NCBI RefSeq assembly: GCF_009834365.1
Contig: NZ_CP041348.1
Span: 926,501-990,500, forward strand
Reading direction: 5' to 3'
From: Komagataeibacter xylinus
GTDB taxonomy: Bacteria > Pseudomonadota > Alphaproteobacteria > Acetobacterales > Acetobacteraceae
Length of the DNA: 64,000 nucleotides
The notes below the pieces were generated by a model that was not told the DNA's origin, did no database searches, and saw only the letters and a list, made by a program, of their open reading frames with translations. Numbering within the stretch: the stretch's first letter is position 1; each line of letters starts with the position of its first letter. The position numbers and the translations under genes were made by a program. Positions 36 through 63,885 of this stretch are shown here, in pieces.

Positions 36-377
36 CGGCACCCTTTACGGAATCCGCACCCCGGTTGCCAGTACGAACTCTCATCGCCCGCGTAAAGAAG
101 CTGCTGGAAAAGCCTGCCCACTGCATGTGCTGCAAATCATGCAAAAGTTTTTGGCGAAGCTTTTTTTCAAAAAGCTTCGAAGAACGCCGCCTTTCTGAAA
201 TAAAGGTGGCACCCAGAAACTTTTATTCCTTTTTCCACTAGGCTTCCTGCGCCTGCTGCATGGCGGCGTTGGACAGACGCAGCCGGGAAAGCCACAATGC
301 GGCAGCGATTCCCATACGGGAATGTTCCCCGCCTGCACCCGGCGCGCCGGATGCCGCGCAATTTATGGAGTTAGCCC
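36..377. other. Intergenic stretch with one structured repeat and a possible 25-codon ORF
   Basis: This 342-base gap between the divergent genes holds the repeat at 143-226. Just beyond it, on the minus strand, a short frame runs from an ATG at about 315 to a TAG at 240-238 (starting MGIAAALWLSRL). Its stop lies 12 bases from the repeat, as is typical for genes next to this repeat elsewhere in the window. No convincing ribosome binding site is seen, so the ORF is not called as a gene. Confidence 0.3.
143..226 (+). repeat. Dispersed double-hairpin repeat, copy 1
   Basis: The copy has the family layout. A left arm AAAAGTTTTTGGCG comes first, then a first hairpin (GAAGC ... GCTTC with a T-rich/A-rich stem), a second hairpin around CGCC ... 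GGTGGC, and a right arm CACCCAGAAACTTTTAT complementary to the left arm. The second hairpin is imperfect here (CCGCCTTTCT against TAAAGGTGG). Confidence 0.9.
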
Positions 378-605
378 ATGTCCTACGCCGCCCTTGATGC
401 CGTCCGTATTGCCCGCGCCTGCAAGACTGCACTGCATGTGCTCGAAACGGTGGAAGAAAAGGACCGCAGCGAGGCCCACCAGCGCAAGACCATCATGATC
501 CAGCGCATCGAGGCCCTGGCCCGCGCCGCCGCCGAGAGCAAGAACAACGACCAGGTCATTACCCTGACCTCGGAAGAATTCTGGCTGATCAGCCAGAACT
601 GGTAA
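378..605 (+). CDS. Small conserved-looking protein of unknown function (75 aa)
   Basis: The frame opens with ATG eight bases after a clear GGAG ribosome binding site and ends 63 bases before the PEBP gene, so the two may be co-transcribed. The product is 75 residues, charged and apparently all helical. A basic/acidic helical stretch (EEKDRSEAHQRK) leads into an Ala-rich helix, and the tail ends SEEFWLISQNW. There is no signal peptide or membrane segment. Composition, ribosome binding site and position support a real gene, but I do not recognise the family. Confidence 0.65.
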   Translation: MSYAALDAVRIARACKTALHVLETVEEKDRSEAHQRKTIMIQRIEALARAAAESKNNDQVITLTSEEFWLISQNW

Positions 606-668
606 TTCCAGGCGCCATTACCCTCCCCCTATTCGCGCCAACCCCGGCACGAAAAGCAGGAAACCCAC

Positions 669-1163
669 ATGACGTTTACACTGACCAGCCGCTCCTTCAA
701 CGATGGCGACCGCCTGCCTGAAGCGCAGGTGTTTGAAGGCATGGGCTATTGCGGCGGCAACATCTCGCCGCCGCTGGCATGGCAGGACCCGCCTGCGGGC
801 ACCAAGAGCTTTGCCATCACCATGTACGACCCCGATGCGCCCACCGGCTCGGGCTGGTGGCACTGGGTTGTCATCAACATCCCTGCCGAGGTCACCTCGC
901 TGCCCGCAGGCGCTGGTTCGGGCGACAACAACCTGCCCGAACATGCCGAGATGACGCGCACCGACTTTGGTGGCAACGTATATGGCGGTGCAGCGCCCCC
1001 GCCCGGGCCGGAGCATCGCTACATCTTCACCATCCACGCGCTTGATATCGCGCAGATCGAACTGCCGAGCGATGCCTCGGGCGCCATGGTGGGGTTTGTG
1101 ATCAACCAGCATAGCCTGGGCTCGGCCAAGCTTACGGCCGTGTATGGCAAGAAGCCGAAATAA
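669..1163 (+). CDS. YbhB/YbcL-type PEBP-family protein (Raf kinase inhibitor-like)
   Basis: This 164-residue protein carries both hallmarks of the phosphatidylethanolamine-binding fold: DPDAP followed by WWHWVVINIP near residues 55-75, and the GPEHRYIF motif near residue 115 that lines the anion pocket. Length fits the bacterial YbhB/YbcL group. Bacterial members are small soluble proteins whose biochemical role is poorly defined; ligand or kinase regulation is extrapolated from eukaryotes. No signal peptide is visible, so it is probably cytoplasmic. An AGGAAA ribosome binding site supports the ATG. The gene ends four bases before a structured repeat that probably terminates its transcript. 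Confidence 0.9.
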   Translation: MTFTLTSRSFNDGDRLPEAQVFEGMGYCGGNISPPLAWQDPPAGTKSFAITMYDPDAPTGSGWWHWVVINIPAEVTSLPAGAGSGDNNLPEHAEMTRTDFGGNVYGGAAPPPGPEHRYIFTIHALDIAQIELPSDASGAMVGFVINQHSLGSAKLTAVYGKKPK

Positions 1164-1166
1164 GAG

Positions 1167-1246
1167 AAGTTTTTGGTGAAGCATTTTTCAAAAAGCTTCG
1201 AAAAATGCCGCCTTTTTGAAAAAAGGCGGCACTCAAAAACTTTTAT
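1167..1246 (+). repeat. Dispersed double-hairpin repeat, copy 2
   Basis: The left arm AGAAGTTTTTGGTG is followed by a first hairpin with one substitution (GAAGCATTTTTC against AAAAAGCTTC), a second perfect hairpin GCCGCC ... GGCGGC, and the right arm CACTCAAAAACTTTTAT. It lies between two convergent genes, 3 bases after one stop codon and 6 before the other, a placement that suits a bidirectional terminator. Confidence 0.92.
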
Positions 1247-4053: not shown

Positions 4054-4244
4054 TTCGGACTTCTCCGTACATCCGCCCGGGCAATGCTGACCCGGAACGG
4101 ATTTTTGCAGACATGCGGGTTCGGACCACGCCGTGCCACAGCACCAAGCTGTGCGTCAAACTTCATGGCATGGCAAGCCACGGGCGCGCGGCATCCCTTC
4201 ACGAAGCGGATACCGCACCATCAACCTAACATGAGCAGAAGAAA

Positions 4245-4535
4245 AGGTGGGAGGGCTTCTGTTGCCCGGTGCCCTCCCGAACCGCGCTTATCGCTTATGC
4301 AGCGACAGCGAGCACCTCTGAGTTATCGTTGGCACTTGTAATTTAGCCCGATAACGGTGGTACAATGCCGGGCAAAAGGCGGGTCTTTACCATGCGTGTC
4401 GAGCCTGTTTCGTCCCCATATCCCCCACCTGGAGGGAAACTGGTGGAGACGCCGGGTACCGCCCCCGGGTCCACAACACTTATTCCACGCGCCGTTTATC
4501 GCCATAGCCAAGGGGCAAGCCCCTCCTGCACTTTG
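4245..4535 (-). ncRNA. ssrA: Permuted two-piece transfer-messenger RNA
   Basis: On the minus strand the order is 3' acceptor piece first, coding piece second, as in alphaproteobacteria. The acceptor piece ends with a T-arm (GGGGGCGGTACCCGGCG) and an encoded TCTCCACCA at 4449-4441. After a short spacer the coding piece begins near 4426 with GGGGAT, able to pair with GTCTCC of the acceptor, followed by GGCTCGACACG. The tag frame at 4333-4295 reads ANDNSEVLAVAA then TAA. A strong hairpin at about 4276-4248 (GGGAGGGC ... GCCCTCCC) followed by a pyrimidine run closes the gene. The outer boundaries are approximate. It rescues stalled ribosomes; neighbouring sspB handles the tagged product. Confidence 0.93.
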
Positions 4536-4865
4536 CAACATAGGCATTCGCCCTGCATCTGGCAAGGGTTACGTGAACGGGGGTGCGGTGCAGCAGCCAC
4601 AATTTTATCCACCCGCGAGAGGTGGAATTTTCATGCCTGTCCGCAAGGAGGCCGCTCATGGCGGTTACAGGCCCTGTTGCAGCGTGGATATCATTGCCCC
4701 TACGCGCCTGCATGCGCCATGATGCCGCCGTAAAAGCGGGCCAGAGCCATACTGCCCGGACAGGCCATGCAGGCTGTTGGCCCGACGTGCCGCTTTATAT
4801 GGTCTGGCCCATATGGTATGGCCCGCGTCCTTGTGGTGATGCATATGAACGAGGCGGTAGGACAC
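4536..4865. other. Intergenic region between ssrA and thyX, with one hairpin
   Basis: No gene is supported here. The stretch should hold the promoters of ssrA (minus) and thyX (plus), but I cannot assign clean -35/-10 boxes. At 4601-4631 there is an AT-armed hairpin: AATTTTATCCACC, a seven-base loop, then GGTGGAATTTT. In-frame ATG codons upstream of the chosen thyX start (4767, 4818, 4839, 4845) lack a ribosome binding site. Confidence 0.5.
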
Positions 4866-10274: not shown

Positions 10275-12827
10275 ATGCACGGACAATCACGCCTTCTCGC
10301 CCTGCTTGCTGCGTTCATGCCTTGGGGACCAGTTCATGCCGGGAGCCCCCAGCCTCCCGCCAGCACCGTCACCCATACGCAGGCTAGCGTGGAATGGCAG
10401 GGCAATGGCCTGCTGCTTGAGGTTACAGCCTTGCGGGATGACATTGTCCGCATCCGTATCGCTCCGAATAGCGGCCATCTGCCGGAAGATGCCTCCTGGG
10501 CCGTTCTCCCGACCGCGCGGCAGGCACATGTTTGTGCCACCCCGACTGATGATGCGCATGCCGTAGGCTTTGCGACCAGATCCCTTAAAATCAGCATCAA
10601 TCGCCTCACCAGCGCACTGAGCATAACGGATGACAAGGGCACCCCGCTCCTGACCGACAGGGGCGCGCCCGCGCTCCTGCCCTCTGACCGCCACGGCTTT
10701 ACCCTGATCAAGACCCTGCCCGATGATGGTCACTTCTTTGGACTGGGCGACAAATTCGGCCCGCTGGACCGGCTGGGCAAAAGCTATGCCATGTGGAATA
10801 CCGACAGTTACGGCTACCGGGAGGGACAGGACCCGCTTTACAAGGATATCCCCTTCTTCATCGGTTATACCCATCATGCCTATTATGGCGTTTTTGTTGA
10901 TAACACCTGGCGGACATTCTTTGATTTCGGCCATGAAGACCCCTCTGCATTGCAGATCAAAGCAGAAGATGGCCCGATCGATTATTATGTCATGGCCGGG
11001 CCTGATGCCAAATCCGTTGAGCAGCAATATGCCTGGCTGACCGGGCCGCCCGCCATGCAGCCCGAATGGATGCTTGGCTTCCAGCAATCACGCTGGGGAT
11101 ATCCGACCGAGACCGCCCTGCGCGATATTGGAGCCCACCTGCGCGCCGACCATGTTCCCACCGATGCGGTCTGGATGGATATCGATTATCAGGATCGCTT
11201 CCGCCCCTTTACCGTCGATCCGGCCACATTTGCGCATTTTCACCAGATGATCGCCGATTTTGCCAAAACCGGCATCCATACGGTCGCCATTACGGACCTG
11301 CATATTGCCGATGCCCCGCATCAGGGCTACGCGCCCTATGACAGCGGCATGGCACAGGACCGTTTTGTCAAGGATGCCAGCGGCAGGCCCTATATCGCCC
11401 CCGTATGGCCCGGCCCCTCGCTGTTCCCTGATTTCACGCAGGCTGCGACCCGCGCCTGGTGGGGACAGCTATACCGCCACTTCGCCCTTGAAGACGGCAT
11501 TGCCGGGTTCTGGAACGATATGGATGAACCCGCCGTTTTTGATACGCCCACCAAGACCATGCCGCTCAATACCGTGCACCGCATAGACGAACCGGGCTTT
11601 GTCCCCCGCACGGCGTCGCACCGCGAGATCCATAATATCTATGGCATGCAGAACCACCGTGCCACGTATGAAGGGCTGCTGGCACTCAAACCTGACGCGC
11701 GCCCTGTTGTCATGACCCGTGCCTCCTATGCCGGGGGCCAGCGCTATGGGGTGACCTGGACAGGGGATAACGCCTCCACCTGGAATCACCTGGCGCTAAG
11801 CGTGCCGATGCTCGAAAGCCTCGGTCTGGGCGGCTTTACCTTCTCTGGCGCTGATATTGGCGGGTTTGCAGGCGTGACCTCACCCGACCTGCTGACCCGC
11901 TGGTACGAAATCGCCATGTTCACCCCCATCGCCCGCTCGCATGCCGACAAGGATAGCGGCCCGCAGGAACCGTGGGCCGATGGCAGGATGCATGAAGACA
12001 TCCGCCGCCACTTTATCGAGACCCGTTACCGCCTGCTGCCCTACAACTATACGCTGGCGGAAGAAGCATCGCGCACCGGTATCCCGATGATGCGCCCCCT
12101 CTTCATGGAATTTCCGGACACGCTCATCCACAAGGCCCCGATGGACCTTGCCAGTGGCAATGAGTTCATGTGGGGGGCGGCCCTGCTCGTGGCCCCCTCG
12201 CCCGCGCCGGAATCGCCCGCGCCCTACCGGGTCACGCTGCCGCCGGGCCAATGGTATGATTACTGGACCGGCCAACCGGTCACCACGGCTCAGGCGCTGG
12301 TTCTCAAGGGCGCGGCGGGCTCGATTGCCAGGGCAGAAGAGGGGGATACCAATACGGCACATGAGCTGAAAGTCGCACCCCGGCTGGATCAACTGCCGGT
12401 TTACGTGCGGGGCGGCAGCATCATTCCCCAGCAGCCGCTTGTACAAAGCACCATGCAAACACCGGGCGGCCCGCTCACGCTGCATGTCTATCCGGGCGGG
12501 AACTGCCAGGGCAGCGTGTATGCCGATGATGGACAATCCTTTGATTTTCGCAAGCAGGCCTACAACCGGGTCCGCTTTCGCTGCCAGATTGACCAAAAAG
12601 GCGGCCTGAGCCTGACGGTCGGCCCGACGGAAGGCACCTTCCAGCCATGGTGGCATGCCTATGCCGTTGTCATTCATGGCAGGAACGCACCCCACGCGCA
12701 GGCCACCTTCAATGGCACGACGCTACCCGTCAGCGTGGCTGATACACCCATAGGGCACGGGCTGATGGTGACCATTCCCGCTACGGAAGGTAGCCTGCAG
12801 GTAAACCAACCCATTCCTGAAAAATAA
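10275..12827 (+). CDS. Exported glycoside hydrolase family 31 (alpha-glucosidase-type)
   Basis: This 850-residue enzyme begins with a signal peptide ending near VHAGS and has the GH31 domain order: N-terminal beta-sandwich with FFGLGDKFGPLDRLG, the TIM barrel, and C-terminal beta domains. The nucleophile is Asp415 in FWNDMDEP. WTGDNASTW and the RSHADKDSGPQEPW region supply the acid/base side. It hydrolyses alpha-linked glucosides or related sugars from a non-reducing end, in the periplasm or outside. It follows the glycosyl-transfer genes after 73 bases and may share their transcript. Family is certain; exact substrate (maltose, isomaltose, xyloside) is not decidable here. Confidence 0.92.
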   Translation: MHGQSRLLALLAAFMPWGPVHAGSPQPPASTVTHTQASVEWQGNGLLLEVTALRDDIVRIRIAPNSGHLPEDASWAVLPTARQAHVCATPTDDAHAVGFATRSLKISINRLTSALSITDDKGTPLLTDRGAPALLPSDRHGFTLIKTLPDDGHFFGLGDKFGPLDRLGKSYAMWNTDSYGYREGQDPLYKDIPFFIGYTHHAYYGVFVDNTWRTFFDFGHEDPSALQIKAEDGPIDYYVMAGPDAKSVEQQYAWLTGPPAMQPEWMLGFQQSRWGYPTETALRDIGAHLRADHVPTDAVWMDIDYQDRFRPFTVDPATFAHFHQMIADFAKTGIHTVAITDLHIADAPHQGYAPYDSGMAQDRFVKDASGRPYIAPVWPGPSLFPDFTQAATRAWWGQLYRHFALEDGIAGFWNDMDEPAVFDTPTKTMPLNTVHRIDEPGFVPRTASHREIHNIYGMQNHRATYEGLLALKPDARPVVMTRASYAGGQRYGVTWTGDNASTWNHLALSVPMLESLGLGGFTFSGADIGGFAGVTSPDLLTRWYEIAMFTPIARSHADKDSGPQEPWADGRMHEDIRRHFIETRYRLLPYNYTLAEEASRTGIPMMRPLFMEFPDTLIHKAPMDLASGNEFMWGAALLVAPSPAPESPAPYRVTLPPGQWYDYWTGQPVTTAQALVLKGAAGSIARAEEGDTNTAHELKVAPRLDQLPVYVRGGSIIPQQPLVQSTMQTPGGPLTLHVYPGGNCQGSVYADDGQSFDFRKQAYNRVRFRCQIDQKGGLSLTVGPTEGTFQPWWHAYAVVIHGRNAPHAQATFNGTTLPVSVADTPIGHGLMVTIPATEGSLQVNQPIPEK

Positions 12828-12907
12828 AAAGTTTTGGGGCGCCGCCTTTTTTCAAAAAGGCGGCATTCTTTGAAGCTTTTTGAAAAAAGCTTCACCAGAA
12901 ATTTTTA
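12826..12907 (-). repeat. Dispersed double-hairpin repeat, copy 3 (inverted)
   Basis: Read on the minus strand the copy shows the standard order: outer arm, AAGCTTTTTTCAAAAAGCTT hairpin, GCCGCC ... GGCGGC hairpin, and outer arm GCCCCAAAACTTTTTAT. It begins at the stop codon of the GH31 gene and ends eight bases before the stop of the convergent isoaspartyl peptidase gene. Confidence 0.92.
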
Positions 12908-13898: not shown

Positions 13899-14015
13899 CT
13901 GTCAAACTCCCCGGAGAACCAAGGCGCTGAGTTTACAGGAATAATACGGACAGGAAACGATTTCTTCCGCGCGCAGCCAGAAGCATATTTTAAGGGACGT
14001 TTTTGAGGCTTCGTG

Positions 14016-14037
14016 AAAAAAGCCGCTTTCCGGCAGC
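14016..14037 (-). terminator. Orphaned intrinsic terminator of the GNAT gene
   Basis: On the minus strand GCTGC, a six-base loop, GCGGC and then TTTTTT form a compact terminator. Removing the IS630 element puts it three bases after the GNAT stop codon, so it very likely belonged to that gene before the insertion moved it about 1 kb away. Confidence 0.75.
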
Positions 14038-14042
14038 CTTTA

Positions 14043-15093
14043 GAGCACGCTGCGAATAGATTGAATCATAGGATTCCAAAAGGGCGTCTGATGTGATTCA
14101 AGATGAAGACTGGTGAAGGAGGCCAGCCTTCATGCCAAAAGCTTACTCGCAGGATTTACGAGACCGCGTGATTGATGCGGTGGAGAAAGACGGCATGAGT
14201 TGCCGGGCAGCGGCGCGGCGTTTCGGCGTGAGTGATTCTTCAGCGATCAAATGGGTGCAGCGCGCAAGACGCATCGGAGATCGGTGCTGCGCCGGCACGG
14301 GCGGGCATCGTCCCTCGAAAACCAGACCTGAACGGGCCTGGCTGCTGGCCATCATTGATGCCGAACCTGATATCACCCTTGCGGCGCTGTCGATCCGACT
14401 GCGCGAGGAGCGTGGCGTTCAGGCCGACACAGGCATGCTCTCGCGCTTTTTCCAATCCGAAGGGATCAGCTTCAAAAAAAAGCGTGCTGCCCTGCGAGCA
14501 GGATCGGCCTGACGTCGCGCGCAAGCGTAAATTCTGGAAGCGCTATCAGGCCGATATAGATCCCACGCATCTGGTCTTTATCGACGAAACCTGGGCCAAG
14601 ACCAACATGACGCGCACGCACGGCCGTTGCCGCAAAGGTGAGAGACTGAGAGCCAGAGTCCCTCATGGCCACTGGAAGACACTGACCTTTCTGGCTGCCT
14701 TGCGTCATGACCGGATCACCGCACCCTGCGTTCTCGACGGACCGATCAACGGGCGCAGTTTTTTGGCCTATGTCGAGCAGTTTCTGGTTCCAACACTCAA
14801 GCCGGGCGATATCGTCGTGCTCGACAATCTCGGCAGTCACAAGGGCGATGCGGTTCGCAAGGCCATTCGGGCTGTCGGGGCGAGGATGATCTTCCTGCCG
14901 CCCTACAGTCCCGATCTCAATCCGATCGAACAGGCCTTCGCCAAACTCAAGACTTTGCTGCGAAAAGCCGCAGAGAGATCCGTTGAGACAACATGGAAAC
15001 GCATCGGCGAACTCATCAAATGCTTCTCTCCACGGGAATGCGCCAATTATCTCAAGAACTCAGGATACGCATCAATCTAATCACAGAATGCTC
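14043..15093 (+). mobile_element. IS630-family insertion sequence, 1051 bp
   Basis: The element is bounded by TA dinucleotides at 14041-14042 and 15094-15095, the target duplication typical of IS630/Tc1. Terminal inverted repeats are imperfect: the left begins GAGCACGCTGCGAATAGATT and the right, read inwards, begins GAGCATTCTGTGATTAGATT (about 18 of 22 match). It carries one transposase gene split over two frames. The insertion site is the stop codon of the downstream GNAT gene. Confidence 0.93.
14132..15080 (+). CDS. IS630-family transposase, split by a frameshift
   Basis: The first frame (14132-14512, 126 aa) gives the N-terminal helix-turn-helix part ([38 protein letters not shown]). The DDE domain lies in a second frame (within 14232-15080), with catalytic residues in [22 protein letters not shown] and [12 protein letters not shown]. 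The frames meet at an A8 run at 14474-14481. Frame 1 reads SFKKKRAAL there and frame 2 reads [15 protein letters not shown], which continues the family sequence. Joining them needs a +1 step or loss of one A in the transcript. It may be programmed slippage or an inactivating insertion. Confidence 0.92.
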
Positions 15094-18341: not shown

Positions 18342-18351
18342 GACGACCGAT

Positions 18352-18433
18352 AAAAGTTTTTGGTGAAGCTTTTTTCAAAAAGCTTCGAAAAACGCCGCCT
18401 TTTTGAAAAAAGGCGGCCCCCAAAAACTTTTAT
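18352..18433 (+). repeat. Dispersed double-hairpin repeat, copy 4
   Basis: This is a near-consensus copy. It has left arm AAAAGTTTTTGGTG, perfect hairpin AAGCTTTTTTCAAAAAGCTT, spacer GAAAAAC, perfect hairpin GCCGCC ... GGCGGC and right arm CCCCCAAAAACTTTTAT. It sits between convergent stops, 10 bases after ppa and 11 before the GT4 gene. Confidence 0.95.
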
Positions 18434-31083: not shown

Positions 31084-31188
31084 GAAATAAATTTCCCCAA
31101 TATAAATAATGCTTTTTAATATTTACTCATCACAATAGTAACGAAAGGCGCGCCGGCCTGCGCCGCATGCCCGATTGCTGTCCTGATA

Positions 31189-35260: not shown

Positions 35261-35329
35261 CAAAAGCGCCGTCCCGCAGCCCTGCGGGACTTGTTGACCG
35301 GTGCGGGAAATGATGCCCATCATTGCATT

Positions 35330-35737: not shown

Positions 35738-35912
35738 GCGGCCTGCGCCGCCACAACGGCACGAAATCGCAACGAACCATTTTTTGGCCTAGCCGCTGCG
35801 GCATGCGGATGGCATAAGCTGGCCGCTGGCGGAACAGCAGGGAATGTCGCGATAAGATGGACCGGGTCCATGCCTGTTACGTGCCCGCGGGGCCTGCCCC
35901 GGCCCGGCACGC

Positions 35913-36437: not shown

Positions 36438-36489
36438 ACCTTATCGTCGGTCCCCGCCGCCCCCGTCCGTCAAGGAAAGATCGCCCACC

Positions 36490-39217: not shown

Positions 39218-39222
39218 CAAGC

Positions 39223-39305
39223 AAAAGTTTTTGGTGAAGCTTTTTTCAAAAAGCTTCAAGGAAACGCCGTTTTTTTGAAAAAAGGCGACACCCAGAGACT
39301 TTTAT
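39223..39305 (+). repeat. Dispersed double-hairpin repeat, copy 5
   Basis: The left arm AAAAGTTTTTGGTG and the first hairpin AAGCTTTTTTCAAAAAGCTT are perfect. The second hairpin is weakened (CGCCGTTTTTTTG against AAAAAAGGCGAC), and the right arm CACCCAGAGACTTTTAT has one change. It lies between convergent stops, 5 and 7 bases away. Confidence 0.92.
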
Positions 39306-39312
39306 CTTTTCA

Positions 39313-40698: not shown

Positions 40699-40833
40699 GG
40701 CAGGGGCTTTTCGGGCGGAAGGAAAAAATGTTCTGTTATGTAAACGATATCGGGGACGGCCCTGCCTATCAATCCTTCGGGGACACAAGGCAGCCTGAAA
40801 AAGCCACTCACCCTAACACCATGCAAATCATAA

Positions 40834-40916
40834 AGAAGTTTTTGGTGAAGCTTTTTTCAAAAAGCTTCGAAAGGTGCCCCCTTTTCCGAAAAAAGGTGGC
40901 ACCCAAAAACTTTTAT
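40834..40916 (+). repeat. Dispersed double-hairpin repeat, copy 6
   Basis: The left arm AGAAGTTTTTGGTG and hairpin AAGCTTTTTTCAAAAAGCTT are perfect. The second hairpin is degenerate (GTGCCCCCTTTTCCG against AAAAAAGGTGGCAC). The right arm is CACCCAAAAACTTTTAT. The last base touches the purD stop codon, so it sits exactly at the 3' end of purD and upstream of the MFS gene. Confidence 0.92.
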
Positions 40917-42208: not shown

Positions 42209-42274
42209 CACTTGTTTCTCCCGTTTTTCATCTCTGCCCTTTCGGGGTGGCCGTCTCTATCATACCTTGTGCGG

Positions 42275-44127: not shown

Positions 44128-44163
44128 GGACTTGTTTGAACAACAAACCATTGATAAGAAATA

Positions 44164-44248
44164 ATAAAATTTTCCGGATGCCCGTTTTTTTTCAAAAAGA
44201 TGGCATTCTTTCGAAGTTTTTTGAAAAAACTTCACCAGAAACTTTCAT
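44164..44248 (-). repeat. Dispersed double-hairpin repeat, copy 7 (inverted, diverged)
   Basis: Read on the minus strand: arm GAAAGTTTCTGGTG, hairpin AAGTTTTTTCAAAAAACTT (both sides changed together, C to T and G to A, keeping the pairing), second hairpin ATGCCATCTTTTTG against AAACGGGCAT, and arm CCGGAAAATTTTAT. The paired changes in the first hairpin are a compensatory substitution. Confidence 0.85.
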
Positions 44249-44401
44249 CATTTCAGGGTATTATCGGGCCTGACTGTTCAGGCAGCCACACAGTACCAGC
44301 CCATAGAAGCACGCTGCATGGGTCATATACTCAGGATGGGCAGGCCCACGCCATATTCCCATTGACTTGGCCGGAAGGGATGGTCGAGTTTCAAGGGCAT
44401 C

Positions 44402-44863
44402 ATGACCCTGCCCCCCTCGTCCGGTCCCATAGGTGAGCAACAGGCGACGGTCCACATGTTCCCCCTCAAGCGCATGCTCTCCATGCGCGAGGCGGCGGAA
44501 TATGTCGGTATCACGCCCCGCAGGCTCCGCAGCCTGAGGCTGGTGGGGGCAGGCCCGCATGCCGCCATGCGTCATGGCCGCAAGGCAATGTTCCGCATCG
44601 AAGACCTTGATGAATACGTTGATGGCCTGTACCGCCGAGCCAATATCTCCCACACCGAGCAGGCCCGCCAGCGCACCGAATGGCGCGGCAGGCTGGCCGC
44701 CCTGCCAGATGACGCACGCGCCAGGCTGGCCGATTCCTTCATGCAGATCGTCACGCGCGATGAATTGCTGGAGAAAGGAGCCAACCGGGGCTTCAGGGTG
44801 CTGTTCCTTGGCGGGCTGTGCCTCATTTTCCTGTCGCATACGCCCCTGATCTGGCGGCTATAG
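44402..44863 (+). CDS. Excisionase-type helix-turn-helix protein with a C-terminal membrane segment
   Basis: In this 153-residue protein, residues about 25-75 form a MerR/excisionase-like winged helix-turn-helix (LSMREAAEYVGITPRRLRSLRLVGAGPHAAMRHGRKAMFRIEDLDEYVDGLYRR). The middle is charged and helical. The last 25 residues contain one hydrophobic segment (VLFLGGLCLIFLSHTPLIW), so it may be tail-anchored with the DNA-binding part in the cytoplasm. AAGGG precedes the ATG; an in-frame ATG at 44456 is an alternative. No phage gene surrounds it. Targets unknown. Confidence 0.72.
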   Translation: MTLPPSSGPIGEQQATVHMFPLKRMLSMREAAEYVGITPRRLRSLRLVGAGPHAAMRHGRKAMFRIEDLDEYVDGLYRRANISHTEQARQRTEWRGRLAALPDDARARLADSFMQIVTRDELLEKGANRGFRVLFLGGLCLIFLSHTPLIWRL

Positions 44864-44968
44864 GGGCATCGATCCGCCATTTCGTGCCAAAGGCGCTTTT
44901 TTTGCCTGTGCGGGGATGTTCTTTCGCCATACGATCCGCTACGCAGAAACCACGATAGCGGAACAATA

Positions 44969-45706
44969 ATGGATCGGATAATGACAGGTATGCGGAGCAG
45001 CATTATGGCCCCGACCGGACACGCCCGCCTGCGTGGCGCGCTTTGTGGGCTGGCTATTGCCCTGACCCCGGCCCTTGCCATGGCGCAGGACGCAGGTGGC
45101 CAGCAGCAGAACCCCATTCTGCCCATGCCGCCCGTGCCGGAATTCAAGCCCCTGCCTGCTGGCAACAAGCCTGCGGCGCCTGTTATCGGCATCTTCAACA
45201 CCCAGCAGATCATGGCGCAGTCCACTGCCGTGCAGAAGCTGCAGACCGAACTGGGCAGCCGCCGTGAAGCGCTGGTCAAGGACGTGCGCGCCGAGGATAC
45301 GCAGTTGCAGGCGCTGCGCCAGTCCATCATCAAGGCGGGCAAGGCCCCCACGCCCGAGCAGCAGCAGGAGCTGCAGAAGCGCGTGATGGCCGACCGCACC
45401 AAGTTCGGCAACCGCAACCGCATCCTTGAAGAAGACGCGCAGGTCGCCCTGAACCAGGTGCAACGCGAAATGCAGCAGGTTGTCAGCGCCATTGCCGCAG
45501 CCCGTGGCATGAACATGGTGCTGCAGGCCGGCACCGCTGCCCTGCATGACAACAGCCTCGATATCAGCGATCAGGTCGTGACCTACCTCAACCAGGTGCT
45601 GCCCACCGTGTACCTGCCGGGCCCCACGGAAGACCCTGAGGAAATTGCCAAGAGCGGCAAATACCCTGTCATGCCGTTCCAGCCTGCTGATAACGGCGGC
45701 GAATAA
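44969..45706 (+). CDS. OmpH/Skp-family periplasmic protein
   Basis: The 245-residue protein has a signal peptide (LRGALCGLAIALTPALAMAQ), a Pro-rich stretch (NPILPMPPVPEFKPLPAGN) and then the OmpH/Skp core. That core is an initial strand VIGIFNTQQIM, a long charged coiled coil (about residues 90-180) and a C-terminal strand-helix part (GMNMVLQAGTAALHDNSLDISDQVVTYLNQVLPTV). Skp chaperones unfolded outer-membrane proteins. Here it stands alone rather than between bamA and lpxD, and has an unusual Pro-rich insert and an acidic tail. The half-repeat terminator follows 31 bases later. Confidence 0.85.
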   Translation: MDRIMTGMRSSIMAPTGHARLRGALCGLAIALTPALAMAQDAGGQQQNPILPMPPVPEFKPLPAGNKPAAPVIGIFNTQQIMAQSTAVQKLQTELGSRREALVKDVRAEDTQLQALRQSIIKAGKAPTPEQQQELQKRVMADRTKFGNRNRILEEDAQVALNQVQREMQQVVSAIAAARGMNMVLQAGTAALHDNSLDISDQVVTYLNQVLPTVYLPGPTEDPEEIAKSGKYPVMPFQPADNGGE

Positions 45707-45737
45707 CACCCAAGGGCCGCGCCTGCCGCCCCTGACA

Positions 45738-45787
45738 ATAAAAATTTCAGGGTGCCGCCTTTTTTTTCAAAAGGCGGCATTTTTTTA
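45738..45787 (+). terminator. Half copy of the double-hairpin repeat acting as an intrinsic terminator
   Basis: Only the GCCGCC/GGCGGC hairpin and one outer arm (AATAAAAATTTCAGGGT) remain; the AAGCTT hairpin is missing. On the plus strand GTGCCGCC, a T/A-rich loop, GGCGGCAT and then TTTTTTAATT is a textbook terminator for the OmpH-like gene. As a repeat it lies in inverted orientation (copy 8). Confidence 0.88.
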
Positions 45788-45799
45788 ATTTATTAGCAG

Positions 45800-47098
45800 T
45801 TAGTTACGGCCCTGCCCCACCAGCAGGTTGAGCGTCACGCCGGACAGGATGCACAGCAGCACCCCGTTGCCCAGCAGCAGCCGCGCCAGAGCGTTCATGT
45901 GGGTGAACAGGTCCGGGCAGGCCATGGGCAACAGCCCCAGCCCGAGCGAGACGGCAGCAATCAGCCCATTGCGCGTGCCCTCAAAGCGCACATGCAACAG
46001 TTCGCGTATGCCGCCCACCGTGGTCATGCCGAACATGACCAGCCCACACCCCCCCAGCACGGGCGCTGGCAGGGCGGCAATCAACGCGCCAAGCTTGGGG
46101 AACAGCCCCAGCCCGATCATGACCACGCCTGCCGCCGCCACCACAAAGCGGCTGCGGATGTCGGTCATGGCGATCAGCCCGGTATTCTGGGTAAAGGCAT
46201 TATAGGGAAAGCTGTTGAACGCCCCGCCCAGCATGGTCGACAGGCCATCGGCCCGCAGCGCGCCTGCAATGGTGACGTCGTTCACCGGCAGGTCCACCAC
46301 GCGGCCAATGGCCAGGCAGTTGCCAGTTGTTTCCGCCACGATAATGACCATGCTCAGCAGCATGATGAAGACCGGCATGGCGTGGAACTCGGGCAGGCCA
46401 AAGGCGAAGGGCGTGCTGACGGCAAACCACGGCGCATCAATCACCATGCCGTAATGCCCCATGCCGCATAGCGCCGCGATCACGCTGCCCGCCACCAGCC
46501 CCACCAGCACGCTGATATTGGACCAGAACCCCCGGCCCCATGCCTGCACGCCCACCGTGATGACAATGGTGGCGAAGGCAAGCACAAGATTGGCCACACT
46601 GCCAAACTCCGGCGCACCGGGCGTGCCGCCCCCAATCCACCGCCCCGCCACGGGAATGAGCGTAAGCCCGATGATAATGATGAGGCAGCCAATGACCACG
46701 GGCGGAAAAAAGCGCATGAGTCGCGCCATGAACGGCGCCAGCACCACCATGGCCAGCCCCGCGCCAATCACCGCGCCAAATACAGAGCGCACGCCATAGA
46801 TCTGCCCGATGAGCAGCATCGACGCCAGCATGGCGAAGGATGACCCCTGCACGATGGGCAGACGCGAGCCGAATTTCCATACCCCCACACTCTGTATGAT
46901 CGTAGCGATGCCCGATGTCATCAGCCCGCAATTGATCAGCATGACAGTCTGCGGACCAGACAGGTGCATGGCGGCGGCAAAGACCAGCGGCACCGCCACG
47001 GTACCCGCGTACATGACCAGCGCATGTTGCAGCCCGAAGGCAAACAGCATGCCCATGGGCAGCATTTCATCAACCGGGTGGTTTTTCTGTGCTGTCAC
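45800..47098 (-). CDS. NCS2-family nucleobase permease (xanthine/uracil type)
   Basis: The protein has about 13 membrane segments and the NCS2 signatures: GLQHALVMYAGTVAVPLVFAAA near the N-terminus, the substrate motif AETTGNCLAIGRV, FNSFPYNAFTQNTGLIAMT and the following GVRSR-like region. It imports a purine or pyrimidine with protons. The best start is GTG at 47098, close behind GGAGAGGG, giving 432 residues; an ATG 11 codons upstream lacks a site. Purine and uracil carriers are hard to separate by eye; the QNTGL motif favours xanthine/uric acid-type transport. It ends 12 bases from the half-repeat terminator. Confidence 0.92.
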   Translation of the reverse strand: MTAQKNHPVDEMLPMGMLFAFGLQHALVMYAGTVAVPLVFAAAMHLSGPQTVMLINCGLMTSGIATIIQSVGVWKFGSRLPIVQGSSFAMLASMLLIGQIYGVRSVFGAVIGAGLAMVVLAPFMARLMRFFPPVVIGCLIIIIGLTLIPVAGRWIGGGTPGAPEFGSVANLVLAFATIVITVGVQAWGRGFWSNISVLVGLVAGSVIAALCGMGHYGMVIDAPWFAVSTPFAFGLPEFHAMPVFIMLLSMVIIVAETTGNCLAIGRVVDLPVNDVTIAGALRADGLSTMLGGAFNSFPYNAFTQNTGLIAMTDIRSRFVVAAAGVVMIGLGLFPKLGALIAALPAPVLGGCGLVMFGMTTVGGIRELLHVRFEGTRNGLIAAVSLGLGLLPMACPDLFTHMNALARLLLGNGVLLCILSGVTLNLLVGQGRN

Positions 47099-47138
47099 AT
47101 GCCCTCTCCACTTGCAGGTACGCGCCTGCACAAAAAGA

Positions 47139-47164
47139 ACCCCGCCTTCTGGTAAAGGCGGGGT
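47139..47164 (-). terminator. Intrinsic terminator of the TonB-dependent receptor gene
   Basis: On the minus strand ACCCCGCCTT, a six-base loop, AAGGCGGGGT and then TCTTTTTG follows the receptor stop by 20 bases. Confidence 0.85.
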
Positions 47165-47183
47165 CCGGCAGGCGTAAGGGAAA

Positions 47184-49664
47184 TCAGAAAGAGGTGGATA
47201 CGGTGCCTGTCATGGTAAAGCGCGGCTCGACCATGAAGGAGTTGCCATTGGCATAACGGCCCAGTGGCGATGAGGCACCATAGTAAACCGGATACCCACC
47301 CTGCGTGCCTGCGTGATAGATCGCACCCATCGCACCCGTGCGCACGATCGAACCGGTCAGGTTGCTGAAGTTCAGCTTGAAGGTCGGCGACTTGGCATAC
47401 ATGAAGGGCTTGAAGTGATAGCCCAGCGACAGCGTGTCGGTCACATAACCCGGCATGCGCTCGCTGTTATCCAGTGCGACCGACTGCGGGCCGGTGTAAT
47501 GCACCGCCCCGTTGGCAAAGAAACCCTTGTACTTATACGTCAGGCCAAAATTGGCCATGATACGCGGCGCCATGATGGCCTGCTGCCCCTTGGCGGCATA
47601 GGTGATGCCAGTCGTGGGGTCCGTAACGTTGGAATCCTGCGTCGCGTGCAGGTATTCAAATGACGCGTAAGGGCTGAACCCATGAATCGGGCGGCTTGCG
47701 ATCATGGCGTCAAAGCCGCGCATGGTCTGGTTGCCACCTTCAATCGGCATGAACTGATTGGCACCAATATAGGTGCTCAGAATACGATTGGTCACGTTGT
47801 AGTTGAACAGCGACAGGTCAAACATGACGTATTTGTCGTGATACCGGTAGCCCAGTTCTTCCTTGATGGAATACTGGTTCTTCAGCATCTTCTGGTTACC
47901 ACCCGGCGTCAGCCAGCCGAGATCGTTGGCTGAAGGCTCACGGTAGTCACCCTCGGCATTTACATAGATCTGGTGGTGGTTGTTGAAGGTGTAACCGATG
48001 GAAAGCTGCGGCAGGGGTTCGGTCGTGTTCGCCCCCATGCGGCCCACGCTCGCACCGGGTGAAAGGTTCTTGCCATATGTCCAGTTGCTGGCAGCCGAAT
48101 TCCAGCCCTTGTCCCACGCATCGGACATGACAAACTTGAAGCCCGCATGGATCTGCAGCTTGTCATTAAAGTATTTTGCGGTGTCCTGAATGAAAAGCGC
48201 ATGCAGTTCGTAACCCGCATTCACGCCCGATACGCCAAAGGTCTCGTTGGAATAGGTGTTCTGATACGCGGCTGCGTTGGGGCTTGGCGTCGAGCCATTG
48301 GCCATGGTGTAGCTTAGCGGATAGGACTGGATCGTCTGGTTGTTTTCATACCAGTAGCCAAACGAGACATGGTTGTGCCTGTCGACATCATAGCCCAGCT
48401 TGGCAACGACGCCGACCTGACGGGCCTCGTTCTCCAAGAAGAAATTCGTATAGTTACGACCTTCGGCGGAAGAATAATTCGTGCCATATGCCGTATTGTT
48501 ACCCGGTGAGGCATCCCAGCCCTGACCAAAGCTGAAATAGGACTGCAGGTCGAACGTGAATTTGGCAGGCAGCACCACATGGATCGGTGCCGTCAGAAAG
48601 ATCTGGTTCCAGTGGTCGTTATTGTTCTTCCAGTAGTTGTCACTGGTGGGGTCGGAGTTACGACCATAGCCTTCGCCCGTGCGCTTGTAGTTTTCAAACG
48701 CATCACCATCGGGATAGGCATCGATGACGAAATCCTCGGAGTTCCACGACAAGAACAGCTTGGCGGTGGAGCCGTTGTTCCAGTCCTTCTGCAGGCCAAA
48801 ATCGATATGCTTGCGCTGGTTGATGCCCGAACCCATCCACGAACGTGAATGCGTGTTGGAGAACGAGAAATAGCTGCGCACGCCGGTATTGCCGATATCA
48901 CCCGAATCAAGGCGAATGAACTCGCGCGACATGTTGTTCGTGCCATAGGAGAAATCGGTCATCCCGCCGAATTTGTGCGATGCCGTGCGCGAGCGCTCAT
49001 TCATCACGCCGCCTGCGGCTGACATGGCGGGCAGGTCGGTGGCTGAACTGCCGGGGGTTACCTCGACACTCTCGAGGTTTTCAGAATCGATATCTTCGTT
49101 CAGGTATTTGGCTGCTTCCGCCGGCGCGCCATCAAGCATCAGCCCCATGTCGAGGTCGGTCAGGCCACGGGTCTGGATCTGGCCGCCTTCCATGCCCGAC
49201 GGATCAGGCGAGTTCACGTTCATGCTCGGCAGGTTCTTGACCAGGTCGAGCGCCGTGCTGGTGGGGCTGCGCATTTCAATGAACTGCTTGCCGATGGTCT
49301 GCACCGCATGGGGCGCAGTTTCCTGGCGCATCATGCCGCCGCCGCCATCATGCTCCTGGCGCGAGGAAGCCACGCGGATCTGCTCGGGTGCCGATGTGTC
49401 CGTAACGCCTGCGGGCGCTGCGCTGCGCTGCTTCGGTGCTGCCGCCTGCCGGACCGGTGCGTGGCGATGGGGGGCAGTCTGCGTGGTGGCCACCTGCGCC
49501 CATGCCTCGTTACCTGTGGCGAGGCACATCGTGCCCACCAGGCAGGATACGGCACGCAGGCGCATTTTCAGCCCTGGCATGCGCAGCCCGGCCAATCCGC
49601 CCTGTCCTGCCGCGTTGCGCACCTGCCGTATCACGACGTTATAAATATCCCGGCCCGTCTTCAT
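47184..49664 (-). CDS. TonB-dependent outer-membrane receptor
   Basis: The 826-residue protein has a long N-terminus and signal peptide (LRAVSCLVGTMCLATGNEAWA), a His/Ala/Pro-rich stretch, a plug domain (PHAVQTIGKQFIEMRSPTSTALDLVKNLPSMNVNSPDPSGMEGGQIQTRGLTDLDMGLMLDGAP) and a beta-barrel rich in aromatic and Asn residues, ending with TVSTSF for outer-membrane insertion. It imports an unknown ligand (siderophore, vitamin or saccharide) using energy from TonB. The plug resembles broad TBDR families without siderophore-specific marks. The tonB-exbB-exbD genes lie 490 bases upstream on the same strand, separated by a terminator, so it is expressed separately. Confidence 0.93.
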   Translation of the reverse strand: MKTGRDIYNVVIRQVRNAAGQGGLAGLRMPGLKMRLRAVSCLVGTMCLATGNEAWAQVATTQTAPHRHAPVRQAAAPKQRSAAPAGVTDTSAPEQIRVASSRQEHDGGGGMMRQETAPHAVQTIGKQFIEMRSPTSTALDLVKNLPSMNVNSPDPSGMEGGQIQTRGLTDLDMGLMLDGAPAEAAKYLNEDIDSENLESVEVTPGSSATDLPAMSAAGGVMNERSRTASHKFGGMTDFSYGTNNMSREFIRLDSGDIGNTGVRSYFSFSNTHSRSWMGSGINQRKHIDFGLQKDWNNGSTAKLFLSWNSEDFVIDAYPDGDAFENYKRTGEGYGRNSDPTSDNYWKNNNDHWNQIFLTAPIHVVLPAKFTFDLQSYFSFGQGWDASPGNNTAYGTNYSSAEGRNYTNFFLENEARQVGVVAKLGYDVDRHNHVSFGYWYENNQTIQSYPLSYTMANGSTPSPNAAAYQNTYSNETFGVSGVNAGYELHALFIQDTAKYFNDKLQIHAGFKFVMSDAWDKGWNSAASNWTYGKNLSPGASVGRMGANTTEPLPQLSIGYTFNNHHQIYVNAEGDYREPSANDLGWLTPGGNQKMLKNQYSIKEELGYRYHDKYVMFDLSLFNYNVTNRILSTYIGANQFMPIEGGNQTMRGFDAMIASRPIHGFSPYASFEYLHATQDSNVTDPTTGITYAAKGQQAIMAPRIMANFGLTYKYKGFFANGAVHYTGPQSVALDNSERMPGYVTDTLSLGYHFKPFMYAKSPTFKLNFSNLTGSIVRTGAMGAIYHAGTQGGYPVYYGASSPLGRYANGNSFMVEPRFTMTGTVSTSF

Positions 49665-59814: not shown

Positions 59815-59817
59815 AAC

Positions 59818-59900
59818 AGAAGTTTTGGGTGAAGCTTTTTTCAAAAAGCTTGAGAAGAACGCCGCCTTTTTGAAAAAAGGCGGCACCCAAAAACTTTTAT
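59818..59900 (+). repeat. Dispersed double-hairpin repeat, copy 9
   Basis: The left arm AGAAGTTTTGGGTG, first hairpin AAGCTTTTTTCAAAAAGCTT, spacer GAGAAGAAC, second perfect hairpin GCCGCC ... GGCGGC and right arm CACCCAAAAACTTTTAT are all present. It starts three bases after the thiC stop and ends 23 bases before the stop of the convergent small gene. Confidence 0.95.
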
Positions 59901-60325: not shown

Positions 60326-60360
60326 TGCGATCTCCCCGCCCCTGAACTGCCTGCCACAAA

Positions 60361-60400
60361 ATAAAACGGGCCATGCCTTACAGCATGACCCGCCTTTTTT
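60361..60400 (-). terminator. Probable bidirectional terminator after ilvE
   Basis: The minus strand reads CGGGTCATGC, a six-base loop, GCATGGCCCG and then TTTTATTT, with one mismatch in the stem. On the plus strand the same hairpin is followed by CCTTTTTT. It lies just after the ilvE stop. Confidence 0.82.
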
Positions 60401-61660: not shown

Positions 61661-62512
61661 TTACGCCTTGCCCAGCACAAAACCCAAAGCGCGCAGGGCA
61701 GCAGGCAGGTGCTCGCGGCCATGGAGTGCGCCCACATCCCCCATTCGCGCCACCACGCCCTCGCTCCAGCCCCGCGCACCCGCGCGGCTGGCCTCAAGGC
61801 AGGCGTCATAAGCCTTTATGCTGGCTTCATCGCTGGCAGTAGCGGGGTTGTAGCGTTCCTCATGCAGCACCATAGCCTGCGGCAGGCGCGGCTTGATGGC
61901 GGTGGGCTGCGCGCGGTCGGGGTAGCCCACGCTCATGCCAAACAGCGCGAACGTTCCGGGCGGCAGGCCGAGCTCGGCGGCAATGGCCTCGGGCTGGTTG
62001 CGCACGGCACCCACGTACACGATCCCCAGCCCGTAGGATTCAAACGTCGCCGCCGCATTCTGCCCGGCCAGCGCCGTATCCACCACGCCGCCCAGAAATG
62101 TATCGAGGCAGTCCAGCCCCGGCAGTGCCCGGCCCTGCGCCTGCCCCACATGCTCGAGCCGCGACAGGTCCACCACCCACGCCAGGAACAGCGGCGCCTG
62201 CGCGATGAAAGCCTGATCGCCCGCTATTTTGGCCAGCCGGGCACGGCGCGCGGGGTCGCGCACGGCAATTACGCTCCATGCCTGCAGGTTGCATGAGCTC
62301 GAGGCCGACTGGGCTGCGGCAATCGCCGCCTCCACCACGCCTTCGGGCAGGGGTGCGGGGCTGAAATGCCGCACGGAACGATGCGCCATGAGGCTGCGCG
62401 CCACCGGGCTTTCGGGCAGCGGCTGCGCCGGCGGTTTCGTGCCATAACGGGCCTGCCACAGCGCATTCATGGAGGACTGGGCGGAAAAGGAAGAAACGGT
62501 ACTGCTGGACAT
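61661..62512 (-). CDS. Nitroreductase-family FMN oxidoreductase (NfsA-like)
   Basis: From the ATG at 62512, seven bases after AGGAGG, the product is 283 residues. The fold is recognisable: SLMAHRSVRHFSPAPLPEGVVEAAIAAAQSASSSCNLQAWSVIAV (the R-S-x-R-x-F and SSCNLQ motifs) and FESYGLGIVYVGAVRNQPEAIAAELGLPPGTFALFGMSVGYP. It resembles NADPH-dependent nitro/flavin reductases that act as dimers. The physiological substrate (quinone, chromate, nitroaromatic) cannot be assigned. Confidence 0.9.
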   Translation of the reverse strand: MSSSTVSSFSAQSSMNALWQARYGTKPPAQPLPESPVARSLMAHRSVRHFSPAPLPEGVVEAAIAAAQSASSSCNLQAWSVIAVRDPARRARLAKIAGDQAFIAQAPLFLAWVVDLSRLEHVGQAQGRALPGLDCLDTFLGGVVDTALAGQNAAATFESYGLGIVYVGAVRNQPEAIAAELGLPPGTFALFGMSVGYPDRAQPTAIKPRLPQAMVLHEERYNPATASDEASIKAYDACLEASRAGARGWSEGVVARMGDVGALHGREHLPAALRALGFVLGKA

Positions 62513-62828
62513 AGGCATGCCTCCTGCCTGTGCAATGCTGGCTGAAAAAGCAGCACACCACAGCGCAACAGCCACAGCTAGCGGGGCGATATCACACCTG
62601 CCCTGCACATTTTCATGCCGCGGGCCGGCCCAGGAGGGCAGTACGCCCGCCCACCGTTTGCGCATGGCCCGATTTTTTGAAAATATCTTTCCAGATCAGT
62701 TATTTATTTCAGCACGCCCATCACGTTCATGCGAAATCACACGGGTTTAAATAGGAAGAAACACCCCAAGAGAGCATGAAGGCCACAGCACGCACCCTGT
62801 TTCAATAATAAGCAAGGAACCCGTTCGC

Positions 62829-63818
62829 ATGTTCGAGGCCCTCATGATCCGCCAGGCCGATGGCGAGACCACCACCCGGCTGGAACAGGTCGACCCCGCA
62901 AGCCTGCCACAGGGCGATGTGACGGTTGAAGTCGCGCAGTCGAGCCTGAACTACAAGGATGCGCTGGCCGTGACGCACGGCACGCCGGTGGTGCGGCATT
63001 TTCCCATGATTCCGGGCATCGACCTTGCGGGCCGCGTTCTCCACTCCGATGACCCGGTCTTCCGCCCCGGCGATCAGGTTCTGGCCACCGGCTGGGGGCT
63101 GGGAGAAAAGCACTGGGGCGGCATGGCCGGCATGGCCCGCCTGCCGGGGCGGTGGCTGCTACCGCACCCTGCAGGCCTGTCGGGGCGGCAGGTGATGGGA
63201 ATCGGCACGGCAGGCTTTACGGCCATGCTGTGCGTGATGGCGCTGGAAGATGGCGGGCTGACGCCTGCCTCCGGCCCCATCATCGTAAGCGGTGCGGGCG
63301 GCGGCGTGGGCGGCATGGCCGTAATGCTGCTGGCACAATTAGGCTATCAGGTGGTGGCGGTGACCGGGCGGGCGCAGCTTCAGGCCTATCTGATCAGCCT
63401 CGGTGCGGCTGAAGTGCTGCCGCGCGAGGCGCTGGCCCCCACTGGCAAACCGCTGGAAAAGGCGCGCTGGGCAGGCGGAATCGATGTGGTGGGGGGCGAG
63501 GTTCTGGCCACGATGTGCGCCTCCATTACGCAGGGCGGCACGGTGGCGGCCTGCGGGCTGGCAGGCGACATGGCCCTGCCGCTGACGGTGGCCCCTTTCA
63601 TTTTACGCAATGTGCGCCTGCAGGGAATCGACAGCGTCATGTGCCCCCGCCCGCGCCGCATGACGGCATGGGCGCGGCTGGCGCGTGACATCGACCCCAC
63701 ACGACTGGACAGCATGCTGCATGACGCAACACTGGCCGAGGTGCCTGCCCTCGCGCCGCGGCTGCTGGCAGGGCATATAAGAGGGCGGACAGTCGTCCAC
63801 CTCACTGATTCAAAATAA
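62829..63818 (+). CDS. acuI: Zinc-independent MDR oxidoreductase, AcuI/YhdH type (acryloyl-CoA reductase)
   Basis: The 329-residue protein matches the AcuI/YhdH branch: SSLNYKDALAVTHGTPVVRHFPMIPGIDLAGRV, GWGLGEKHWGGMAGMARLPGRWLL, MGIGTAGFTAMLCVMALE and the NADPH-binding VSGAGGGVGGMAVMLLAQLGYQVVAVTGR. Known relatives reduce acryloyl-CoA to propionyl-CoA with NADPH. Catalytic zinc ligands of alcohol dehydrogenases are absent, as expected. It stands alone, with a truncated structured repeat directly after its stop. Confidence 0.93.
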   Translation: MFEALMIRQADGETTTRLEQVDPASLPQGDVTVEVAQSSLNYKDALAVTHGTPVVRHFPMIPGIDLAGRVLHSDDPVFRPGDQVLATGWGLGEKHWGGMAGMARLPGRWLLPHPAGLSGRQVMGIGTAGFTAMLCVMALEDGGLTPASGPIIVSGAGGGVGGMAVMLLAQLGYQVVAVTGRAQLQAYLISLGAAEVLPREALAPTGKPLEKARWAGGIDVVGGEVLATMCASITQGGTVAACGLAGDMALPLTVAPFILRNVRLQGIDSVMCPRPRRMTAWARLARDIDPTRLDSMLHDATLAEVPALAPRLLAGHIRGRTVVHLTDSK

Positions 63819-63819
63819 T

Positions 63820-63885
63820 AAAAGTTTTTGGCGAAGCTTTTTTCAAAAAGCTTCGAAAAACGCTGCCTTTTTGAAAGAAGGCAGC
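63820..63885 (+). repeat. Dispersed double-hairpin repeat, copy 10 (truncated)
   Basis: The left arm AAAAGTTTTTGGCG, the AAGCTTTTTTCAAAAAGCTT hairpin and the second hairpin GCTGCC ... GGCAGC are present. The second hairpin carries a paired C-to-T and G-to-A change that keeps pairing. The right arm is missing and is replaced by a neighbouring terminator. Confidence 0.9.

What the first reader, a model, noticed from the sequence alone, without database searches (positions are those of the whole stretch)
143..63885. A family of ten dispersed three-way-junction repeats at gene ends
Ten copies (143, 1167, 12826, 18352, 39223, 40834, 44164, 45738, 59818, 63820) share an architecture: an outer stem AAAAGTTTTTGG / CCAAAAACTTTT enclosing two hairpins, AAGCTTTTTTCAAAAAGCTT and GCCGCC...GGCGGC. 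All are intergenic and most begin 3-12 bases after a stop codon, mainly between convergent genes. Copies 7 and 10 carry paired substitutions that keep the stems, so the structure seems to be under selection or copied as a unit. A role as a portable bidirectional terminator and/or a REPIN/MITE-like mobile unit fits. Both orientations occur.
Basis: partly seen in the sequence, partly recalled or inferred. Interest (0 to 1): 0.75.

Follow-up and report, generated by a model that had tools for sequence, protein, structure and literature searches.

The report
Flipping three-armed repeats at gene ends
A vinegar-bacterium chromosome carries about 150 copies of an 83-base, three-armed palindromic repeat placed almost exactly where genes end, and sister species often carry the same copy turned around, so it probably works as a two-way transcription stop signal.

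Summary
Eight of ten copies are complete three-way junctions; 63820 lost its right arm, 45738 is a remnant. A covariance model lists 150 places (the scoring cap) in the host genome, a Komagataeibacter: all on the chromosome, none inside a gene by my ORF calls, 145 facing a gene 3' end. Seven of the window's eight convergent pairs carry one. All 19 genus genomes match. Relatives with the same outer stem but other inner clamps ("dialects") occur in 23 of 102 sampled genera of the family; no strong match appeared elsewhere in the class sample.

Folding is kept better than chance. The REPIN transposase family is absent (0 of 19 genus genomes).

Best reading: an orientation-indifferent, bidirectional terminator-like 3'-end element that spreads and is homogenised by an unknown route. 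Termination is inferred, not shown.

The parts
142..226 (+). copy 1, full three-way junction, between divergent genes
   Evidence: (90.2 bits)
1164..1246 (+). copy 2, full, convergent pair; inverted in G018
   Evidence: (99.8 bits)
12825..12907 (-). copy 3, full, convergent pair, overlaps the upstream stop codon
   Evidence: (96.6 bits)
18351..18433 (+). copy 4, full and closest to consensus, after an inorganic pyrophosphatase gene; convergent pair; lacking in six outgroup genomes
   Evidence: (109.3 bits)
18351..18363 (+). copy 4: left outer arm
   Evidence: alignment
18365..18386 (+). copy 4: inner hairpin A (GAAGC..GCTTC)
18394..18417 (+). copy 4: inner hairpin B (GCCGCC..GGCGGC)
   Evidence: alignment
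18420..18433 (+). copy 4: right outer arm ending CTTTTAT
   Evidence: alignment
39222..39305 (+). copy 5, full, convergent pair; site is a breakpoint of the 6.4 kb inversion
   Evidence: (90.1 bits)
40833..40916 (+). copy 6, full, tandem gap, abuts the stop of the minus-strand gene; lacking in five outgroup genomes
   Evidence: (94.1 bits)
44164..44247 (-). copy 7, full, paired substitution in hairpin A; lacking in four outgroup genomes
   Evidence: (78.5 bits)
45738..45808 (-). copy 8, remnant (hairpin B plus one arm), convergent pair; the G018 and G014 orthologs are full, the G018 one inverted; site is the other breakpoint of the 6.4 kb inversion
   Evidence: (28.2 bits)
59817..59900 (+). 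copy 9, full, after thiC, convergent pair; inverted in G014 and G018
   Evidence: (97.4 bits)
63819..63897 (+). copy 10, right outer arm lost, a plain hairpin follows; inverted in G014 and G018
   Evidence: (62 bits)

Best explanation
Each copy is a short, near-symmetric 3'-end element: an A/T-rich outer stem holding two hairpins, with A-rich sequence on its left and T-rich sequence on its right. Transcribed from either side it can fold into the same kind of three-way structure and end on a U-rich stretch, so one copy could serve both genes of a convergent pair as a bidirectional terminator (or 3'-end stabiliser). Because it works the same from both sides, inverting its interior is nearly silent, and such inversions, with breakpoints in the outer arms, are common. 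Copies are gained at gene ends lineage by lineage, beside or in place of plain GC-hairpin terminators, and stay near a genus-wide consensus through continuing spread and/or exchange between copies. Shown: placement, structure-keeping variation, gain and loss, in-place inversion, family-wide dialects, copies at inversion breakpoints. Inferred: termination, the route of spread, the mechanism of inversion.
For: 145 of 150 copies face a gene 3' end; 160 of 225 facing 3' ends lie within -10 to 25 nt of the element against 5 of 75 facing 5' ends; tandem orientation 30 with, 35 against transcription. 7 of 8 convergent pairs in the window. Orthologous gene ends without the element carry plain GC hairpins. 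First 8 nt beyond the element are T-rich when leaving either side (0.52 and 0.43 against 0.22). Copies fold better than copies with the same substitutions placed at random. In-place inversion at 11 of 46 scorable sites. Clamps change in compensated pairs across genera.
Against: No transcript ends were available. T-richness is not higher on the side that receives transcription in tandem gaps (0.462 against 0.465, P 0.78). A simple terminator scan of 30001-48000 marks only the remnant among the four element places there. The outer stem shows no excess of compensated changes within the genome (25 against 27 shuffled), and one-sided changes break pairs more often than they keep them (452 against 335). 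Five of 150 copies are between divergent genes. Interiors diverge about as fast as fourfold sites (0.82 against 0.82-0.83), so constraint on sequence is weak.
Confidence: 0.58

Rival explanations
1. A MITE-like or REP-like selfish repeat, mobilised in trans by an unidentified enzyme, that survives mainly just after stop codons because insertion there does little harm; termination is incidental.
For: Terminal inverted arms; five window sites lacking in four outgroup genomes; 34 to 150 matches across 19 species of one genus; patchy in the family (23 of 102 genera).
Against: PF01797 in 0 of 19 genus genomes; no target duplication recognised; precise placement next to stops, presence in 7 of 8 convergent pairs and structure-keeping variation exceed what a passive safe site needs. 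Other transposase families were not searched.
Confidence: 0.22
2. An mRNA 3'-end stabiliser or processing element: the fold blocks 3'-5' exonucleases while termination happens further downstream, for example by Rho.
For: Strong fold right after stop codons; at 63820 a plain hairpin follows the element.
Against: Does not by itself explain T-rich edges on both sides or the fit to convergent gaps (80 of 150).
Confidence: 0.12
3. A DNA-level element (protein or topology site, BIME-like) for convergent transcription, not an RNA signal.
For: Convergent bias (80 of 150); near symmetry; copies at inversion breakpoints.
Against: 65 of 150 copies are in tandem gaps; relatives use plain hairpins with T-runs at the same gene ends.
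Confidence: 0.08

Closest known systems
REP / BIME / REPIN with RAYT transposases (PMC2817692 and PMC3733652, passages seen; PMC3116915, search listing only)
   Same: High-copy intergenic palindromes, often downstream of genes, taxon-specific, structure-keeping variants.
   Different: About 83 bases with a three-way fold instead of 20-40 base hairpins; no GTAG/CGTC tag in the consensus; PF01797 in 0 of 19 genus genomes. PMC3733652 says CGTC repeats are missing in Acetobacteraceae.
Bidirectional intrinsic terminators (recalled general knowledge)
   Same: Stem-loop just after the stop, A-rich left and T-rich right edge, convergent pairs.
   Different: Branched stem, genome-wide copies of one sequence, A/T-rich outer stem; termination not measured.
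Plastid small inversions at 3'-end stem-loops (PMC6824564, PMC2939885, passages seen)
   Same: Interior flips between stem arms, recurrently, mostly downstream of genes; 6 of 11 in the Lindera paper lie where two genes meet tail to tail.
   Different: There single-copy loops of 5-50 bases; here a dispersed bacterial repeat whose interior is itself two hairpins.
Neisseriaceae DNA uptake sequence dialects (PMC3630211, passages seen)
   Same: Repeat family with taxon dialects that forms terminator-like stem-loops between genes.
   Different: Uptake sequences are short words also common inside genes; here 0 of 150 copies are inside called genes and the conserved unit is the whole fold.

Membership tests
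REPIN/RAYT system | RAYT (Y1 tyrosine transposase, PF01797) in the genome | tested here: not met
   0 of 19 genus genomes (the model rang in 5 of 14 control genomes); 3 of 17 other carriers
REPIN/RAYT system | 20-40 base palindrome with GTAG or CGTC end tag | tested here: not met
   83-column consensus from 134 copies begins AAAAAG and ends CTTTTAT
Intrinsic terminator | stable stem-loop just after a stop codon | tested here: met
Intrinsic terminator | U-rich tract after the stem | tested here: inconclusive
   T enriched at both edges, but not on the transcribed side specifically; simple scan marks 1 of 4 element places in 30001-48000
Intrinsic terminator | transcript 3' ends at the site | not testable with these tools
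   no RNA data
MITE | terminal inverted repeats | tested here: met
   outer arms of 12-13 bases
MITE | target-site duplication at empty/filled sites | tested here: inconclusive
   none recognised by eye; outgroup intervals are too diverged or rearranged
MITE | partner transposon with the same ends | not tested
   only PF01797 was searched
DNA uptake sequence | short word enriched genome-wide, also inside genes | tested here: inconclusive
   0 of 150 copies inside called genes; enrichment of short words was not scanned
Known RNA family (Rfam 15) | match at the gathering score | tested here: not met
   no match over any copy at gathering score; copy 4 at E up to 1 only mir-1805 and SmY far below their cut-offs

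The most novel reading that the evidence does not exclude
A self-homogenising family of bidirectional terminators that spreads among hundreds of gene ends without a transposase: hairpin-primed template switching or exchange between copies both flips each copy in place and overwrites it with the genome's consensus, so that genera keep their own dialect of inner clamps while the outer arms and the fold stay fixed across the family.
Probability: 0.3. Interest if true: 0.8.

Novelty: new variant of a known kind. Interest (0 to 1): 0.62.

Why it matters
If true, one repeat family supplies the 3' ends of a large share of convergent genes in Komagataeibacter (cellulose and vinegar producers), which bears on transcript maps, genetic design and genome stability there. 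It also gives a countable natural system for how terminators arise, flip and are replaced, with tens of orthologous sites per species pair (10 of 46 inverted against G018, 5 of 34 against G014). In-place flipping of 3'-end stem-loops is described for plastids; here it is seen in a dispersed bacterial repeat.

Tried and rejected
REPIN/RAYT: rejected on PF01797 and the missing end tag. Rfam family: none. U-tract tuned to the direction of transcription: tested, not found. Clean empty sites with a target duplication: of the 9 absent or degenerate G014 sites and the 1 ambiguous one, one (921969) had an interval too long to print; of the other nine, five show element remnants with internal deletions (816834, 844232, 1140836, 1236459, 1243833) and four (1124681, 1150391, 1171318, 1257144) little or none; no duplication was recognised. 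Telling inversion of the same copy from replacement by an opposite copy: interiors of inverted pairs are hardly closer to each other than to paralogs (0.81 against 0.79 in G018, 0.83 against 0.83 in G014), so undecided; the outer arms of inverted pairs are no closer either (pairs scoring under 75 were dropped, leaving 35 same and 10 inverted for G018, 26 and 4 for G014). Fourfold-site comparison with G158/G090 failed because indels shifted the frame; those two values are discarded. A blastn call with unsupported gap costs gave no blocks and was redone. A first script joined the minus-strand loci in the wrong orientation and was redone. Literature: ten searches, of which I saw titles and abstract beginnings, listed no description of this repeat; the library holds open-licence papers only.

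Limits: gene calls are my own codon-score ORFs. In other genera both strands of one copy may be listed, so match numbers are not copy numbers. Family and class searches scored only the best 28, 14 and 11 candidates per genome with strict filters, so absence means absence of strong matches. Element absence in the outgroup intervals was read by eye and agrees with the R1 hits.
Full report
OBSERVATION. The conserved hairpin gives 15 matches within 3 mismatches (both strands, 8 places) against a shuffle mean of 0.00. Eight copies form an outer stem with two inner hairpins; 63820 has lost its right arm and 45738 is a remnant. Rfam has nothing over them at gathering scores.

GENOME. By my ORF of 150 lie inside a gene, 80 are between convergent, 65 between tandem and 5 between divergent genes; 145 face at least one gene 3' end. 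Of 225 facing 3' ends, 160 are within -10 to 25 nt of the element; of 75 facing 5' ends, 5 are. In the window 7 of 8 convergent pairs carry a copy, counting the remnant and the truncated copy; in the eighth the gap is 12 nt and the plus-strand gene is IS630-like. In tandem gaps the orientation is 30 with and 35 against transcription.

TAXONOMY. The window's ThiC protein is 98% identical to that of Komagataeibacter xylinus K2G30, the closest named record listed (records very near the window may be left out there), so the host is taken to be a Komagataeibacter. All 19 genus genomes match R1, with 34 to 150 matches each. A second genus (g73: G090, G158) has the same consensus. Elsewhere in the family the outer arm AAAAGTTTTTTGG and the T-run/A-run hairpins stay while the clamps change: GTTC/GAAC, GCTTC/GAAGC, CTCCC/GGGAG, GGCCCC/GGGGCC and others (49 copies from 13 genera printed; some weak ones, such as G085 L065 and G068 L249, do not fold into the three-way form, and several g20, g21 and g80 copies fold by preference into one long hairpin). 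On an alignment of 25 copies from 10 genera, 12 of 27 predicted pairs have two-sided changes that keep the pair. Model R2 from that alignment finds strong matches in 52 of 299 family genomes (23 of 102 genera). In a class sample of 385 genomes 1 matches, the host itself; 5 of those listed belong to the family, so about 380 lie outside it. These searches scored only the best 14 or 11 candidates per genome.

STRUCTURE. Over 134 own copies the mean fold is -28.1 kcal/mol. For the 85 without indels it is -29.2, against -24.4 when the same number and kind of substitutions fall at random (P 2e-10); column shuffles over all 134 give -25.5 to -25.9. Two-sided compensations exceed shuffles in hairpins A (18 against 10) and B (24 against 8) but not in the outer stem (25 against 27); one-sided changes break a pair 452 times and keep it 335 times. 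The constraint is real but loose, and hairpin-templated repair could mimic it.

ORTHOLOGOUS SITES. I compared the host with two sister genomes, G014 and G018 (fourfold-site identity 0.82 and 0.83 in one gene), where syntenic stretches had been fetched; of 151 own copies looked for (150 plus the remnant), 47 had an orthologous interval. G018: 47 sites, 36 same orientation, 10 inverted, 1 ambiguous, 0 absent. G014: 44 sites, 29 same, 5 inverted, 1 ambiguous, 9 absent or degenerate (the orientation scorer agreed with R1 on 151 of 151 own copies). Overall 11 of 46 scorable sites are inverted in at least one sister; of the 34 scorable in both, 4 are inverted in both, 5 only in G018, 1 only in G014, 24 in neither. 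Printed alignments show the flanks continuing and the switch falling within the outer arms, for example at chromosome 1231783; a few (972238, 990319, 1150391) also carry deletions or other changes. Interiors of same-orientation orthologs are 0.82 identical against 0.80-0.81 for paralogs in other loci, and the ortholog ranks only at the 58th (G014) and 62nd (G018) percentile among paralogs, although flanks average about 92%. As interiors diverge about as fast as fourfold sites while paralogs are hardly older, copies must either have spread shortly before these species split or be homogenised; the same consensus in all the genus genomes seen and in g73 argues for continuing spread or exchange (inference).

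GAIN, LOSS AND REPLACEMENT. Six window sites were examined against outgroups; one (12826) gave no outgroup interval. At the other five (143, 18352, 40834, 44164, 63820) G012, G013, G004 and G009 all lack the element, so it was probably gained in the host's clade. The other sites are older: 1167 has a copy in G009 and G090, 59818 in G009 and G004, and the 39223 and 45738 sites carry copies at rearranged junctions. At 18352 G012 has a GC hairpin with a T-run; at 63820 G004, G009 and G013 have plain GC hairpins, and the host keeps a plain hairpin just downstream of the element. After thiC, the Gluconobacter, Acetobacter and Asaia records have plain GC hairpins.

RECOMBINATION. Window segment about 39.3-45.7 kb lies inverted relative to its flanks in G009, G012, G013 and G004 compared with the host, G014 and G018. 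Both breakpoints are element sites (39223, 45738); G009 has an element at both junctions, G004, G012 and G158 at one, G013 at none found. Recombination between copies is the natural reading but is inferred.

MECHANISM. Placement, plain terminators at the same gene ends in relatives, T-rich edges on both sides (0.52 and 0.43 against 0.22) and indifference to orientation point to a bidirectional terminator or 3'-end stabiliser that acts through the whole fold. Against: T-richness is not higher on the transcribed side, the simple terminator scan marks only the remnant among the four element places in 30001-48000, and there are no transcript data. The inversion resembles plastid small inversions at 3'-end stem-loops (PMC6824564, PMC2939885; passages).

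MOBILITY. REPIN membership fails: PF01797 is in 0 of 19 genus genomes and 3 of 17 other carriers. A MITE is possible; no target duplication was recognised and no other transposase family was searched. A survey of tagged palindromes reports the CGTC class missing from Acetobacteraceae (PMC3733652; passages). Ten literature searches listed no description of this repeat.

Noticed in passing
window 39213-45816: A 6.4 kb chromosomal inversion between Komagataeibacter lineages has both breakpoints at element sites.
   Followed up: partly
window about 13990-15090; L161:811-895: An IS630-like insertion (DDE_3 domain) in the host lies where G018 has a full element; the host keeps what looks like a decayed remnant on its left.
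   Followed up: partly
G000 contigs C2-C4 (about 456 kb): No listed copy lies on the three smaller contigs, although about 19 of 150 would be expected by length (capped list).
   Followed up: no
G018 site of chromosome 927664 and G014 site of 986317: Two short-form copies at different loci share the word GACGTTTCCGG and end GAAGCTTTTATC, which might reflect exchange between copies.
   Followed up: no
window 4204-4569, minus strand: Permuted alphaproteobacterial tmRNA gene.
   Followed up: no
window 47137-47166, minus strand, and about 60360-60400: Plain GC-hairpin plus T-run terminator-like sites coexist with the elements.
   Followed up: no
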